A DNA stretch of 33,491 nt from Gammaproteobacteria bacterium (GTDB lineage Bacteria > Pseudomonadota > Gammaproteobacteria > GCA-001735895). Shown in pieces: positions 9,976-25,706 of this stretch. The translations under genes and the position numbers were made by a program. Where the stretch lies: positions 1 to 33,491 of the forward strand of contig JASJCI010000026.1 in the NCBI GenBank assembly GCA_030066085.1, written 5' to 3'. The notes beneath the pieces were generated by a model. It was not told where the DNA came from and did not search any database. It saw only the letters and a program-made list of their open reading frames with translations. Position 1 is the stretch's first letter. Every line of letters begins with the position of its first letter.

Positions 9976-11754
9976 TCAGCTCTCGCCGCGCGGCTGGCGC
10001 AGGCGAATCGACAGTTCGCGCAGCTGGCGTTCACCAACCGCCGCCGGCGCCTGGGTCATCAGGTCGGAAGCGGTCTGGGTCTTGGGAAAAGCCATCACGT
10101 CGCGGATCGACGACGCGCCGGCCATCAGCATCACCAGCCGGTCGAGGCCGAAGGCGATACCGCCGTGGGGCGGGCAACCATAGCGCAGCGCGGTCAGCAG
10201 GAAGCCGAATTTTTCCTCGGCCTCGTCGTCACCGATTCCCAGCAGGTTCAGCACCCGCCGCTGCATCTCGGGGCGGTGGATACGCACCGAGCCGCCGCCG
10301 AGTTCGGTGCCGTTCAGCACCATGTCGTAGGCGCGCGACAGCGCTTCGCCGGGATTGGCTTCGAGTGCATCCGGATCATCGGTGGACGGCGCGGTGAAGG
10401 GATGGTGCAGCGCGTTCCAGCGCTGTTCGCGCTCGTCGAATTCGAACATCGGGAAATCGACCACCCACAGGAAGCGCCAGCCGTCCTCGACCAGCTCGCG
10501 ATCCTGGCCCACGCGCACGCGCAGCGCACCGAGCGATTCGTTGACCACCTTCGCCTTGTCGGCGCCGAAAAAGATCAGGTCGCCGGTTTCGGCGCCGGTG
10601 CGCTCGAGAATACCGCTGATCGCGTCGTCCGGCAGGAACTTGAGGATCGGCGACTGCAGCCCGTCGCGGCCGGCGGCGACGTCATTGCACTTGATATAGG
10701 CAAGCCCCCTGGCGCCGTAGCGGCCGACGTAGTCGGTATAGTCATCGATTTCCTTGCGCGTCAGCGCGTTACCGCCGGGCACGCGCAGCGCCGCGACGCG
10801 CCCGCCCGGATCGCTGGCCGGGCCGGAGAAAACCTTGAATTCGACATCCTGCAGCAGGTCGGAAATTGTCACCAGCTCGAGCGGAATCCGCAGGTCCGGC
10901 CGGTCGGTGCCGAAACGCTCCATGGCCTCGGCCCAGGACATGCGCTGCAGCGGCAGCTCGACATCGAGACCGAGAACGTCGCGGAACAGCTGCTGCATCA
11001 TGTCTTCCATCAATGCCATGATGCCGTCCTCGTCGAGGAACGAGGTTTCGATATCGAGCTGGGTAAACTCGGGCTGACGATCGGCGCGCAGGTCTTCGTC
11101 GCGGAAACAGCGCACGATCTGGTAGTAACGGTCCATGCCGGACATCATCAGCAGCTGTTTGAACAGCTGCGGCGACTGCGGCAGCGCAAAGAAAGCGCCG
11201 GGATGCGTGCGGCTCGGCACGAGGTAGTCGCGCGCACCTTCGGGTGTTGCTCGCGTCAGCATCGGCGTTTCGATATCGAGAAAACCGTTGGCGTCCAGCC
11301 AGTTGCGCATACTGCGGGTGACGCCGGCGCGCAGGCGCATGCGCTCCTGCATCTCGGGCCGGCGCAGGTCGATGTAGCGGTAGCGCAGCCGATTGTCTTC
11401 GTGCACATCGTCGTCGTCGAGCTGGAACGGAGGCGTCTCCGCCGCGTTCAGAATATCGAGCGCGAGCGCCAGCAGTTCGACCTGGCCGGTCGCCATTTCC
11501 GGGTTCTCGGTGCCCTCCGGGCGCGTGCGCAGTTTACCCTCGACGCGAATCACGAATTCGTTGCGCAGGGTCTCGGCGCGCGCGAACATCTCGGCGTCGT
11601 CGGGATCGAACACAACCTGCAGTAATCCGCGGTGATCACGCAGGTCGACGAAGATAACGCCGCCGTGATCGCGCCGACGATTGACCCAGCCACAGACGCT
11701 GATCGACTCGCCGACCTGGGCTTCACTGAGATCACCACAATAATGCGTGCGCAT
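9976..11754 (-). CDS. aspS: aspartyl-tRNA synthetase, probably non-discriminating
   Basis: This 592-residue class II synthetase is bacterial-type AspRS: an N-terminal anticodon-binding OB fold (about 1-110), catalytic core with motif 2 ([20 protein letters not shown]), a GAD-type insertion in the middle and motif 3 ([12 protein letters not shown]) near the end. E. coli AspRS is 590 residues. In the anticodon-binding domain the sequence reads [10 protein letters not shown], with His30 where E. coli has leucine. His at this position in Pseudomonas aeruginosa AspRS is linked to charging both tRNA-Asp and tRNA-Asn. I infer a non-discriminating enzyme that would need the amidotransferase GatCAB to finish Asn-tRNA; gatCAB is not in the window. 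The zinc-ribbon gene lies 62 bases upstream, a common pairing. Confidence 0.97.
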
Positions 11755-20392: not shown

Positions 20393-21329
20393 ATTGCTCC
20401 AGCGCGTCGAGCAGCGCCCGCATGTCTCGCGGCAGCGGGGCCTCGAATTCACTCGCTTCGCCAGTGCGAGGATGCAGCAGGCGCAGGCGCCGCGCGTGCA
20501 GCGCCTGGCGCGCGAAGCCTCGAATCAGGGTAGCCAGTTCCGGGGCTATACCCGCCGCAAGCTGCGCGCGACCACCGTAGTCCGGATCGCCGATCAGCGG
20601 GTGATGGATGTGCGCCATGTGCACTCGGATCTGGTGTGTGCGGCCGGTTTCGAGCTGCAGTTCCACGTGGGTGAAATGATCGAAGCGTCGCGCTACCTGG
20701 AAGTGCGTGATGGCCGGCTTGCCGTCGGCGCGCACCGCCATCTTCTTGCGCTGCCGCGGATGGCGGCCGATCCCGGTTTCGATCCTGCGCCCGGCAGTAA
20801 TCACGCCACGCGCGACGGCCACATATTCCCGCGACACGACACGCCGCTGCAGCTGGTCCACCAGCGACTGGTGCGCAACCAGGTTGCGCGCGACTACCAT
20901 GACGCCGGTGGTATCCTTGTCGAGCCGGTGTACGATACCGGCGCGGGGTAACTGCTCCAGTGCCGGATCGCGCGCCAGCAGGCCGTTGACCAGGGTGCCG
21001 TCGCGATGCCCGGCGGCCGGGTGCACGACGAGACCGGCGGGCTTGTCGATTACGAACAGATCCTCGTCCTCGTACAGCAGGCCGAACTCCAGCGCCTGCG
21101 GCTTGTCCGACAGGCGTACCTGCTGCGGCACGTCGAGCTCGATCCGGTCACCGCGATAGACCTTCTGCCGCGGCTTGCAGCTCCGCTGGTTGAGGCTGAC
21201 GAAGCCCTGCTGGATCCAGTCCTGGATGCGGCTGCGCGAGTAGTCGGGCAGCAGGCGGTGCAACGCGATATCGAGGCGATCACCCGCGTGCTCGGCTGCG
21301 ACCTCGAAACGTTGCTGAATTAATTTCAT
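20385..21329 (-). CDS. rluD: 23S rRNA pseudouridine synthase RluD
   Basis: RluD makes pseudouridines at positions 1911, 1915 and 1917 (E. coli numbering) in helix 69 of 23S rRNA. The 314-residue protein has an N-terminal S4 RNA-binding domain (about 16-65) and a RluA-type catalytic domain with HRLDKDTTG, catalytic Asp137, plus the LETGRTHQIRVHMAHI motif. RluD rather than RluA/RluC is inferred from length and from linkage to pgeF, clpB and divergent bamD. It is divergent from bamD with a 66-base gap. A good promoter pair ends 7 bases before the ATG and no Shine-Dalgarno sequence is visible, which suggests a leaderless or nearly leaderless transcript. Confidence 0.95.
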   Translation of the reverse strand: MKLIQQRFEVAAEHAGDRLDIALHRLLPDYSRSRIQDWIQQGFVSLNQRSCKPRQKVYRGDRIELDVPQQVRLSDKPQALEFGLLYEDEDLFVIDKPAGLVVHPAAGHRDGTLVNGLLARDPALEQLPRAGIVHRLDKDTTGVMVVARNLVAHQSLVDQLQRRVVSREYVAVARGVITAGRRIETGIGRHPRQRKKMAVRADGKPAITHFQVARRFDHFTHVELQLETGRTHQIRVHMAHIHHPLIGDPDYGGRAQLAAGIAPELATLIRGFARQALHARRLRLLHPRTGEASEFEAPLPRDMRALLDALEQYD

Positions 21330-23374: not shown

Positions 23375-24205
23375 ATGCAACAATCCGATATCGTCGCCGA
23401 AATGATGGTGCTGCCGCAAATCGATGCCGACCGTGAAATTCGCCGGCGCATCGACTTCATCAAGTACCAGCTCGAACTGAGCGGTGCCCGTACGCTGGTG
23501 CTCGGCATCAGCGGTGGAATCGACTCCTGCACCTGCGGCCGCCTGGCGCAGCTCGCGGTCGAGGAGCTCAACCAGAACAACCCGGGCTATCGCTTCGTTG
23601 CCGTGCGCCTGCCCTACGCAACCCAGGCCGACGAGGCGGACGCGCAGACAGCAATCGACTTTATCCAGCCCAGCCACGCGCTGACGGTCAACGTGCAGCC
23701 CGGCACGGACGCGATTCACGCGAGTACGCTGGCCGCGCTCGAAGCCGCGGGACTGGGCGGCCAGGACGAAACCACGCTCGATTTCGTGCGCGGCAACGTC
23801 AAGGCGCGCGTGCGCATGGTCGCGCAATACGAAATTGCCGGCCTGCTCGACGGGCTCGTGCTCGGCACCGACCATTCGGCCGAGAACGTGACCGGTTTTT
23901 ATACCAAGTACGGCGACGGCGCCTGCGACCTGATCCCGCTGTTCGGCCTCAACAAGCGCCAGGTTCGCCAGGTCGCAAAACGTCTCGGCGCGCCGGAGAA
24001 GATCATTACCAAGGCGCCGACCGCCGATCTCGAGACGCTCGATCCATCCAGGCCCGACGAGGAAGCGCTCGGACTTTCCTATGACCAGATCGACGACTTT
24101 CTCGAGGGGCGCGAGGTCGACCCCGCGGTCGCCGAGCGCATCATTCACATCTTTACCAGCACCGCGCACAAGCGCGAACCCATCGCCACCGTCTACGACC
24201 AGTAA
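23375..24205 (+). CDS. nadE: ammonia-dependent NAD synthetase NadE
   Basis: NadE adenylates and amidates nicotinate adenine dinucleotide to NAD, the final step of NAD synthesis. The 276-residue protein is the short ammonia-using form (E. coli 275 residues) without a glutaminase domain. It has the PP-loop LGISGGIDS (SGGIDS at 46-51), the conserved GNVKARVRM and [22 protein letters not shown] segments, and KAPTADLE near the ATP/NaAD site. It sits 6 bases after the Tas-like gene and is probably co-transcribed. Its stop is followed by the large folded elements described below. Confidence 0.96.
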
Positions 24206-24229: not shown

Positions 24230-24380
24230 CGGGCGGGCCCGGGGTGGTTCCGCAGGAATTGCACCGAGCGGCGCGAAGCGCCGCTCGGCACATCCATGTG
24301 GCGCTCTCTGCACCGAAGTGTCGGACCAGGCCATCCCTGGCCATGCTAGGTTCCTGCAGAACCACCTCCGGGCCCGCCCG
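24230..24380 (+). repeat. folded element A (long inverted repeat with internal hairpins)
   Basis: The outer arms, 24230-24258 and 24351-24380, are reverse complements except for one mismatch and one single-base gap over 30 positions. Inside, CCGAGCGGCGC (24264-24274) and GCGCCGCTCGG (24278-24288) form a perfect 11-bp stem with a 3-base loop. CACATCCATGTG (24289-24300) follows, then GTGGCGCTCTC (24298-24308) and GGCCATCCCTGGCC (24329-24342), which can form a short hairpin. The same order of blocks occurs, reversed, in element B. The element begins 24 bases after the nadE stop, so it would lie in the nadE transcript's tail and may end or protect it. No T tract follows. Confidence 0.8.
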
Positions 24381-24509
24381 GGACATTCGTAAGCAACATC
24401 GACGTAACGACTTTGAAAACTAGTCCCAATCTGGTCTGCGAACAAAGCAGACAATTGATACAAAGTTGAAGATAACACCCGCGATTTGACGTCTTCACCG
24501 CTCCGGATA

Positions 24510-24639
24510 GCGGTGGCGAGGCAGGCCCCGCGAGAACCTTACCGGGCCAGGGATGGCCCGGTGAGAGCGCCACAGGGACGTGCCGTTCGCTGGGCAGCAG
24601 CGAACGGAGCGCTTCCCGTGGGGCCTGCCTCGCTACCGC
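24510..24639 (-). repeat. folded element B (relative of element A, opposite orientation)
   Basis: The arms 24510-24529 and 24620-24639 are reverse complements at 19 of 20 positions. Inside are two perfect hairpins: ACCGGGCC/GGCCCGGT (24541-24548 and 24555-24562) and CCGTTCGCTG/CAGCGAACGG (24583-24592 and 24598-24607). Read on the minus strand it shares with element A, in the same order, a stem beginning CCG and ending CGG, the segment GGCAC(A/G)TCC(A/C)TGTG, GTGGCGCTCTC, GGCCATCCCTGGCC (14 of 14) and AGGTTC near the right arm. Stem sequences differ while pairing is kept. It lies 114 bases beyond the lipA stop and is oriented like lipA. Confidence 0.8.
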
Positions 24640-24752: not shown

Positions 24753-25706
24753 TCAGGAGTCGAGGACGGCTTCGGCCTGCAGGTCGGCATGGTACGAAGA
24801 ACGCACCATCGGCCCGCTCGCGACCTGGTCGAAGCCGATCGATTCGGCGTAGGCGCCGAGCTCGTCGAATTCTTCCGGCGTGACGAAGCGCTCGACCGCG
24901 AGGTGATCGAGGCTCGGTTGCAGGTACTGGCCGAGGGTCAGCATGTTGACGTCGTGCGCGCGCATGTCGCGCAGTACCTGCCTGACCTCGTCGATTTCCT
25001 CGCCGAGACCGAGCATCAGCCCCGACTTGGTTGGCACCGCCGCATGCATTTGCTTGAAGCGCTTGAGCAGGTCCAGCGACCACTGGTAATCGGAGCCGGG
25101 ACGAATCTTTTTATACAGCGACGGTACCGATTCGAGATTATGGTTGAACACGTCCGGCGGCGCCGCGGTCATGATTTCGAGCGCAACGTCCATGCGTCCG
25201 CGGAAATCAGGCGTCAGTATCTCGATCTTCGTGTCCGGATTGAGGCGGCGTGTTTCGCGGATGCAGTCGACGAAGTGCTGCGCGCCACCGTCGCGCAGAT
25301 CGTCACGATCGACCGAGGTTATGACGACGTAACGCAGGCCCATGTCCTGGATCGTGCGCGCCAGCTGCACCGGTTCGTCGACGTCGAGCGGATTGGGCCT
25401 GCCGTGGCCAACGTCGCAGAACGGACAGCGCCGGGTGCAAATATCGCCCATGATCATGAAGGTAGCGGTGCCCTTGGAAAAACACTCGCCGAGGTTCGGG
25501 CAGGAGGCTTCCTCGCACACGGTATGCAGGCTGTTGGCGCGAAGCCTGGCCTTGAGTTCGGCAACCCGGTTGCCGCTCGGCGCACGAGCGCGAATCCACG
25601 GCGGCTTGCGCGCCACCGACTTGGACGGCACGACCTTGATCGGGATGCGGGCGACCTTGTCGGCGCCCTTGAGCTTAACGCCCTGTACTACCTGATTTTT
25701 TTTCAA
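24753..25706 (-). CDS. lipA: lipoyl synthase LipA
   Basis: LipA inserts two sulfur atoms into protein-bound octanoyl groups to make lipoate. The 317-residue radical-SAM enzyme has both cluster motifs: auxiliary cysteines Cys64, Cys69 and Cys75 ([12 protein letters not shown]) and the radical-SAM CxxxCxxC at Cys90, Cys94 and Cys97 (CTRRCPFC). The C-terminal VRSSYHAD segment holds the serine that completes the auxiliary cluster. The ATG at 25706 lies inside the end of lipB, giving a 32-base overlap in a different frame; family N-termini (GVK..ADK..IP.K) support this start. It is the last gene of the dacA-ybeD-lipB-lipA group. Confidence 0.97.

What the first reader, a model, noticed from the sequence alone, without database searches (positions are those of the whole stretch)
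24230..24639. Two related, oppositely oriented folded elements whose stems covary
Elements A (24230-24380) and B (24510-24639) in the nadE-lipA gap are both near-perfect long inverted repeats with inner hairpins. Compared on the same strand (A plus, B minus) they carry the same blocks in order: a CCG...CGG stem, GGCAC-TCC-TGTG, GTGGCGCTCTC, GGCCATCCCTGGCC and AGGTTC. The first inner stem is CCGAGCGGCGC/GCGCCGCTCGG in A but CCGTTCGCTG/CAGCGAACGG in B: the sequence changes while pairing is preserved. The outer arms behave likewise. This suggests selection on folded structure, either as RNA at the two convergent transcript ends or as single-stranded/cruciform DNA. Each copy is oriented so that it would be transcribed from its nearest gene. 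Similar palindromic words recur between genes in some gammaproteobacteria as far as I recall, but I know no established function.
Basis: partly seen in the sequence, partly recalled or inferred. Interest (0 to 1): 0.75.

Follow-up and report, generated by a model that had tools for sequence, protein, structure and literature searches.

The report
Dispersed two-hairpin RNAs between bacterial genes
The two folded stretches between two genes are copies of a widespread, scattered RNA-like element whose paired stems keep changing together while two small loops stay fixed in the form recognised by a global bacterial regulator protein, CsrA.

Summary
A (24230-24380) and B (24510-24639) are related, strongly folded palindromes in the convergent nadE/lipA gap. 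They belong to a dispersed family: 9 copies in this genome, tens in some congeners, and a short subtype in 68 of 369 sampled Gammaproteobacteria. Covariation is strong: 0.754 against 0.188 shuffled, 50 sequences. Rfam already holds two pieces of this group: TwoAYGGAY (CsrB clan) and Ysr224 (multicopy Yersinia sRNA, other strand). A and B do not reach the TwoAYGGAY cut-off. Neighbouring copies lie back to back, GGA 5' ends inward, in 49 of 51 pairs in the genus and 14 of 18 elsewhere. U-tracts are absent, so they are not intrinsic terminators. Best reading: a two-site CsrA/Rsm-binding RNA module in read-through RNA at gene ends. Binding and GGA-strand expression are untested; a selfish palindromic repeat remains a live rival.

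The parts
24230..24380 (-). Element A, type I copy; the GGA (folding) strand is minus
   Evidence: R1 match 24246-24363 minus, 90.1 bits; fold and coordinates
24264..24288 (-). A, hairpin 3 (variable stem)
   Evidence: sequence, fold
24289..24300 (-). A, hairpin 2 (CACATGGATGTG on the minus strand; CsrA/Rsm-type loop CATGGATG)
   Evidence: sequence, consensus
24313..24324 (-). A, accessory small hairpin (CCGACACTTCGG on the minus strand), absent from B
   Evidence: alignment
24329..24342 (-). A, hairpin 1 (GGCCAGGGATGGCC on the minus strand; loop CAGGGATG)
24510..24639 (+). Element B, type I copy; the GGA (folding) strand is plus; outer arms 24510-24536 and 24613-24639
   Evidence: R1 match 24524-24625 plus, 105.7 bits; inverted repeat I2
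24545..24558 (+). B, hairpin 1 (GGCCAGGGATGGCC; loop CAGGGATG)
24571..24582 (+). B, hairpin 2 (CACAGGGACGTG; loop CAGGGACG)
   Evidence: sequence, consensus
24583..24607 (+). B, hairpin 3 (variable stem)
   Evidence: sequence, fold
23375..24205 (+). nadE, NAD(+) synthase; flanking gene, not part of the element
   Evidence: NCBIfam NF001979, 385.7 bits
24753..25706 (-). lipA, lipoyl synthase; flanking gene, not part of the element
   Evidence: NCBIfam TIGR00510, 428.6 bits

Best explanation
A and B are two copies of a dispersed, strand-specific structured RNA element. A long outer stem, hypervariable but kept paired, displays two hairpins with CANGGANG loops (and, in type I, a third hairpin). 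I infer that RNA read through the gap in the GGA direction presents two CsrA/Rsm sites per element, enough for one CsrA dimer, and that the many copies act as a distributed CsrA-binding layer (sponge or 3' UTR mark) at gene ends, as CsrB-type RNAs do from single loci. Shown: the family, the covariation, the folding strand, the conserved loop, the pair order. Inferred: transcription of the GGA strand, CsrA binding, any effect on genes.
For: Covariation 0.754 against 0.188 +/- 0.010 shuffled, 0 of 500, and 0.09-0.16 for slid structures. Strand: G.U to A.C 164 to 63 in 144 genus helices and 107 to 35 in 78 helices from other loci; GGA strand more stable in 134 of 150 (12 the other way) and 62 of 87 (21 the other way). 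Loop: two CANGGANG in 126 of 150 and 64 of 87 elements, none on the other strand in 148 of 150 and 83 of 87 (the models, and in the second set the search pattern for hairpin 2, favour the motif by construction). This is the Rsm consensus and close to the CsrA SELEX site. TwoAYGGAY and CsrB share Rfam clan CL00106, and TwoAYGGAY was proposed to bind CsrA. Near-complete genomes of the class with type II have csrA in 56 of 57, those without in 224 of 257. Genus genomes with R1 hits have extra CsrA-domain matches in 9 of 16 against 1 of 15.
Against: No binding or expression data. One near-complete genome with type II lacks csrA above the cut-off (G226, best 15.9 bits), as do four less complete ones (G038, G099, G130, G372). 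The csrA associations are not corrected for descent or genome size, and type II absence is uncertain because few candidates per genome were scored. The GGA strand tends to be antisense to the nearest gene 3' end, and the one related family known from RNA-seq, Ysr224, is modelled on the other strand. SELEX hairpins mostly had four or fewer pairs whereas hairpin 1 is longer. The strand signal could also come from single-stranded DNA or from mutation biased by transcription.
Confidence: 0.5

Rival explanations
1. A selfish dispersed palindromic repeat (REP/ERIC/MITE-like) spread as folded single-stranded DNA by a transposase; place and orientation reflect insertion preference and tolerance, with no service to the cell.
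For: Copy number differs strongly within the genus; cores are alike between loci of one genome; the nadE-lipA gap holds different elements in different species; minus-plus pairing is kept in tandem gaps, as an insertion rule would give; a tandem array in L216; copies on two plasmids next to an ISAs1 transposase gene.
Against: Arms differ between loci yet stay paired, with compensated changes between orthologues; two loops are conserved while stems drift; no mobilising enzyme or clean empty site was looked for systematically; no match in 50,697 phage records.
Confidence: 0.3
2. An mRNA 3'-end element acting on the other strand (CCAUCC sense): stabiliser or processing site of the gene next to it.
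For: Single copies near a 3' end have the CCAUCC strand in the sense of that gene 42 to 25, and 20 to 6 within 30 nt of the stop; Ysr224, seen in RNA studies, is modelled on this strand.
Against: Mismatch and energy asymmetries favour the other strand; U-tracts are absent; tandem single copies show no bias outside the genus (12 to 11).
Confidence: 0.12
3. Double-stranded cruciform DNA, for example a topology or chromosome-organisation site between convergent genes.
For: Long palindromes, many in convergent gaps.
Against: A cruciform uses both strands alike; the mismatch and energy asymmetries and the one-strand loop motif contradict this.
Confidence: 0.04

Closest known systems
TwoAYGGAY RNA (Rfam RF01731, clan CL00106)
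   Same: Outer stem with two GGA-loop hairpins on the same strand; type III copies in the genus score above its cut-off (up to 66.7 bits).
   Different: A and B do not reach its cut-off (B 23.7 bits; no A match); they have a third hairpin and loops often AGGGAY. Dispersed back-to-back pairs were not mentioned in the passages I saw.
Ysr224 (Rfam RF02770, Yersinia sRNA 224)
   Same: Its consensus contains the type II core read on the opposite strand (L285 44.5 bits; alignment); multicopy.
   Different: Modelled on the CCAUCC strand and as part of the palindrome; score below its cut-off of 70; on A/B only a 15.1-bit stretch of B.
CsrB/RsmB and RsmY/RsmZ-type CsrA-sequestering sRNAs
   Same: GGA in hairpin loops; CsrB is in the same Rfam clan as TwoAYGGAY.
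   Different: Here two sites per element and many dispersed copies, instead of many sites in one sRNA; no promoter or CsrA binding shown.
REP/BIME/REPIN and ERIC repeats (recalled)
   Same: Dispersed intergenic palindromes, many near gene 3' ends, paired copies.
   Different: Arms share little sequence between copies; strand-specific GGA loops; very regular 5'-to-5' pairing. A RAYT link was not tested.

Membership tests
TwoAYGGAY (RF01731) | Score at or above the curated gathering score (43 bits) | tested here: not met
   Window: 0 matches at gathering; B 23.7 bits in the genome search
TwoAYGGAY (RF01731) | Two hairpins with AYGGAY loops inside a longer stem | tested here: inconclusive
   Two GGA-loop hairpins within an outer stem are present, but three of the four loops in A and B read AGGGAY, one ATGGAT
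Ysr224 (RF02770) | Score at or above the gathering score (70 bits) | tested here: not met
   15.1 bits on B; best type II seen 44.5 bits
CsrA/Rsm-binding RNA | CANGGANG in a hairpin loop | tested here: met
   4 of 4 GGA hairpins of A and B; counts in relatives
CsrA/Rsm-binding RNA | Binds CsrA/RsmA | not testable with these tools
   Needs gel shift or CLIP-seq
CsrA/Rsm-binding RNA | csrA present in the same genome | tested here: met
   One match in G000, E 2.9e-25
Intrinsic terminator | GC-rich hairpin followed by a U-tract | tested here: not met
   T-run of 5 or more in the next 12 nt after 0 of 145 and 0 of 80 elements on the GGA strand, 2 and 0 on the other
REP/REPIN | Conserved short palindrome mobilised by a RAYT transposase (recalled) | not tested
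   RAYT genes were not searched

The most novel reading that the evidence does not exclude
TwoAYGGAY and Ysr224 are partial, opposite-strand views of one gammaproteobacterial superfamily of dispersed CsrA-binding elements. Back-to-back pairs at convergent gene ends put a strand-specific CsrA-binding module in front of each gene's 3' end, so that read-through or antisense RNA entering a gene is captured or terminated by CsrA; together the copies form a distributed CsrA reservoir.
Probability: 0.2. Interest if true: 0.85.

Novelty: new variant of a known kind. Interest (0 to 1): 0.62.

Why it matters
CsrA is a global regulator described as controlled by a few sequestering RNAs. If tens of dispersed elements per genome, in many genera, bind it from gene ends, the CsrA budget and the meaning of 3' ends would need recounting. 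The result also links two separately catalogued RNA families and names the strand that experiments should test.

Tried and rejected
Intrinsic terminator: no U-tracts. Double-stranded cruciform: strand asymmetry. A strict gene-orientation rule: single copies in tandem gaps are 15 antisense to 5 sense in the genus (13 to 4 by hand after removing orthologues) but 12 to 11 elsewhere. A divergent promoter between paired copies: rejected because some spacers are only about 8-13 nt (by eye). A palindromic insertion target at the centre of pairs: some spacers look palindromic but flank logos are weak; left open. The PtaRNA1 hit on A (26.8 against 47 bits) and R1 hits at 20423-20517 (19 bits) and 10747-10834 (18.2 bits) are taken as chance.

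Limits. Match counts of the genome search are not exact: few first-look candidates are scored (9 per genome) and a palindrome can be listed on both strands (so of the 43 R2 matches in G008, one search lists 28 distinct places). In one search, 25 of 398 genomes of the phylum had type II, all of this class, but how many of the 398 were of other classes was not shown. The element table (96 loci, 150 elements) was typed by hand, leaving out weak matches and the weaker of overlapping or opposite-strand matches; loci were chosen because they hold matches and include orthologues. One search used 64 of the 80 loci; 16 were left out as focal-genus contigs by accession and contig length. L225, also of the focal genus (100% identical to L213), had been left in by oversight: one search repeats the mismatch and pair counts without it; still contain it (62 loci with matches, 87 elements). 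A7 has 48 rows and 2 from the genus; none is L225. Searches dropped low-scoring or short helices and repeats. Gene contexts rest on my own ORF caller. One search removed four orthologous duplicates. Paper search found 25 papers, 20 listed; the only listed paper with an element word is an unrelated human-cell study.

Full report
What is there. The gap between nadE (plus, ends 24205) and lipA (minus, 3' end at 24753; both named by NCBIfam) holds two strongly folded stretches, A (24230-24380) and B (24510-24639).

Family in this genome. A search for the 14-nt palindrome found both copies and others, three of them at contig ends. Seven copies gave a consensus of an outer stem, two small GGA-loop hairpins and a third hairpin; 18 of 39 pairs show a change on both sides with the pair kept. 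The model R1 finds 9 places in the 4.39 Mb genome at E <= 1: eight type I, A and B among them, and one of a shorter subtype.

Family in relatives. R1 hits 16 of 31 genomes of the genus at E <= 0.01. Fetched loci showed three types, often side by side: type I (about 102-nt core), type II (short; for example hairpins GCAACAGGGATGTTGC and TACATGGATGTA) and type III, which is Rfam TwoAYGGAY (66.2 bits). A type II model, R2, hits 19 of 31 genomes. RF01731 is above its cut-off in 12 of 31, not in this genome. In the class, R2 hits 68 of 369 sampled genomes and 60 of 271 genera at E <= 1e-4.

Covariation. On 50 type II elements (48 from outside the focal genus as far as sequence comparison shows), 92.5% of cells pair, the covariation score is 0.754 against 0.188 +/- 0.010 for shuffles (0 of 500), and slid structures give 0.09-0.16; 26 of 35 pairs have a change on both sides, though shuffles reach that count in 18 of 500 and the number of pair types in 126 of 500. 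Hairpin 2 hardly varies there because the search pattern fixed it; hairpin 1 and the arms were free. Orthologous loci with about 90-96% identical surroundings show compensated arm changes (L215/L157, L069/L161/L206), and a 15-nt accessory hairpin comes and goes beside GGA hairpins of all three types. A carries such an insertion, B does not.

Which strand. I aligned left and right arms with a score that treats G.U and A.C alike. On the GGA strand G.U exceeds A.C 164 to 63 in 144 genus helices (p 1e-11) and 107 to 35 in 78 helices of the other loci (p 1e-9), after removing the 9 innermost pairs. The GGA strand also folds more stably in 134 of 150 elements (12 the other way) and 62 of 87 (21 the other way), and in A and B themselves. 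In genus type I copies hairpin 3 has the loop CTTG 29 times and CAAG once on that strand (copies are related). So the structure is kept on A minus and B plus. RNA is the simplest reading. Single-stranded DNA, or mutation biased by transcription, could give a similar signal.

The loop. While stems drift, the loop stays CANGGANG. Among 66 GGA-loop hairpins picked by shape in the second set, 60 have the C, 65 the A and 61 the final G, and the base before GGA is free (31 G, 30 T, 4 A, 1 C; the pick required the C-G position to pair). This equals the Rsm consensus (PMC6849547: summary and discussion passages) and is close to the CsrA SELEX site (PMC7652899: passages). Two motifs occur in 126 of 150 and 64 of 87 elements, and none on the other strand in 148 of 150 and 83 of 87. 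Rfam puts TwoAYGGAY in the clan that holds CsrB. PMC4333381 (passages) already proposed that TwoAYGGAY binds CsrA, as a Clostridia candidate; PMC2864571 (one table row) marks it 'y' as an RNA, from human gut, gammaproteobacteria and Clostridiales.

csrA. This genome has one csrA match. Among near-complete genomes of the class, 56 of 57 with type II have csrA and 224 of 257 without (p 0.0097). The exception, G226, has only a 15.9-bit match; four less complete type II genomes also show none. In the genus, genomes with R1 hits carry more than one CsrA-domain match in 9 of 16 against 1 of 15 (p 0.006, not corrected for descent).

Arrangement. Neighbouring elements within 400 nt are ordered minus-plus (GGA 5' ends inward) in 49 of 51 cases in the genus loci (1 plus-plus, 1 minus-minus). 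In the other loci it is 14 of 18 (one plus-minus, three steps of one tandem array). A/B is such a pair. Genus pairs with both genes called lie in convergent gaps 29, tandem 14, divergent 1, so the order is kept in tandem gaps too. Single copies whose nearest gene end is a 3' end have the GGA strand antisense to that gene 42 to 25 (p 0.05), and 20 to 6 within 30 nt of the stop (p 0.009; neither set alone is significant overall, p 0.11 and 0.31). How the GGA strand is made is the main open point; read-through from the opposite gene is my inference.

The same gap in relatives. NadE was found in 24 of 31 genomes, and lipA beside it in 15 of those 24 loci. By eye the gap holds I-/III+ (G016, G029), III-/I+ (G017, G027), I-/II+ (G018), I- alone (G011), a one-hairpin relative (G012), other palindromes (G002, G005, G013, G024, and G014 on a contig end) or almost nothing (G006, G007). 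The site is occupied by different folded elements in different species, which fits either demand for such an element or a tolerant insertion site.

Known names. Type II, read on the other strand, is the core of Rfam Ysr224 (44.5 bits against a cut-off of 70; alignment). A review lists Ysr224 among the most prevalent sRNAs in bacterial genomes (PMC9029176 passages), and Y. ruckeri shows several Ysr224 copies with different expression profiles (PMC12112432 passage). That is outside evidence that such elements appear in RNA; the modelled strand is the other one. Searches for TwoAYGGAY (7 papers, 5 listed), Ysr224 (2 papers) and element words showed no paper in the held library that joins these families or describes the back-to-back pairs; I saw listings and passages, not whole papers. 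A read-through RNA at rRNA operon ends that binds CsrA in vitro has been described in E. coli (RrA/B/F, PMC8144298 passages).

Verdict. A and B are real, covarying, strand-specific members of a dispersed element group of which Rfam holds two pieces. They are not filed as TwoAYGGAY, because its cut-off was tested and not met. They look like two-site CsrA/Rsm modules. Whether they act as such, or are mainly selfish repeats with such loops, needs the experiments listed.

Noticed in passing
L196 2949-3269 (G017), L201 2886-3329 (G028), L202 2-178 (G016, cut by contig start): Tandem CsrA-domain proteins of about 106-147 aa, two CsrA-like repeats in one chain, beside the normal csrA elsewhere in the genome.
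   Followed up: partly
L197, L198, L200, L203, L204 (G017, G018, G029, G016, G026): A divergent 62-aa CsrA paralogue (starts MLVLGCTNHQSVIID) in a conserved gene neighbourhood, in genomes rich in type I and III elements.
   Followed up: partly
L173, L167, L157, L208, L206; window 24313-24324: A 15-nt accessory hairpin is present or absent just 3' of GGA hairpins in all three element types, also between close orthologues; looks like exchange between copies.
   Followed up: partly
L216 3099-3758: Four type II elements in a head-to-tail array about 180 nt apart in a Saccharophagus-like MAG.
   Followed up: no
L362 2501-2568 (plasmid pDCA, Ancylobacter novellus; also NZ_KU922121 of Xanthobacter flavus): Type II-like stretches on conjugative plasmids of alphaproteobacteria, between an ISAs1 transposase gene and a haloalkane dehalogenase gene.
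   Followed up: no
L099, L101, L104 (nadE-lipA gap of G014, G005, G013): Other large palindromic elements without the CANGGANG pair occupy the same gap in other species.
   Followed up: no
L219, L220, L222, L224, L235, L238, L257 (Halopseudomonas/Pseudomonas): An extra small hairpin (like GCTGAnGGTTTT..AACCnTCAGC) lies just 5' of type II elements or between paired ones.
   Followed up: no
L102 (G026 contig end): A type I element seems to break off into type III sequence at a shared CGCTTG word: recombination between copies or an assembly join.
   Followed up: no
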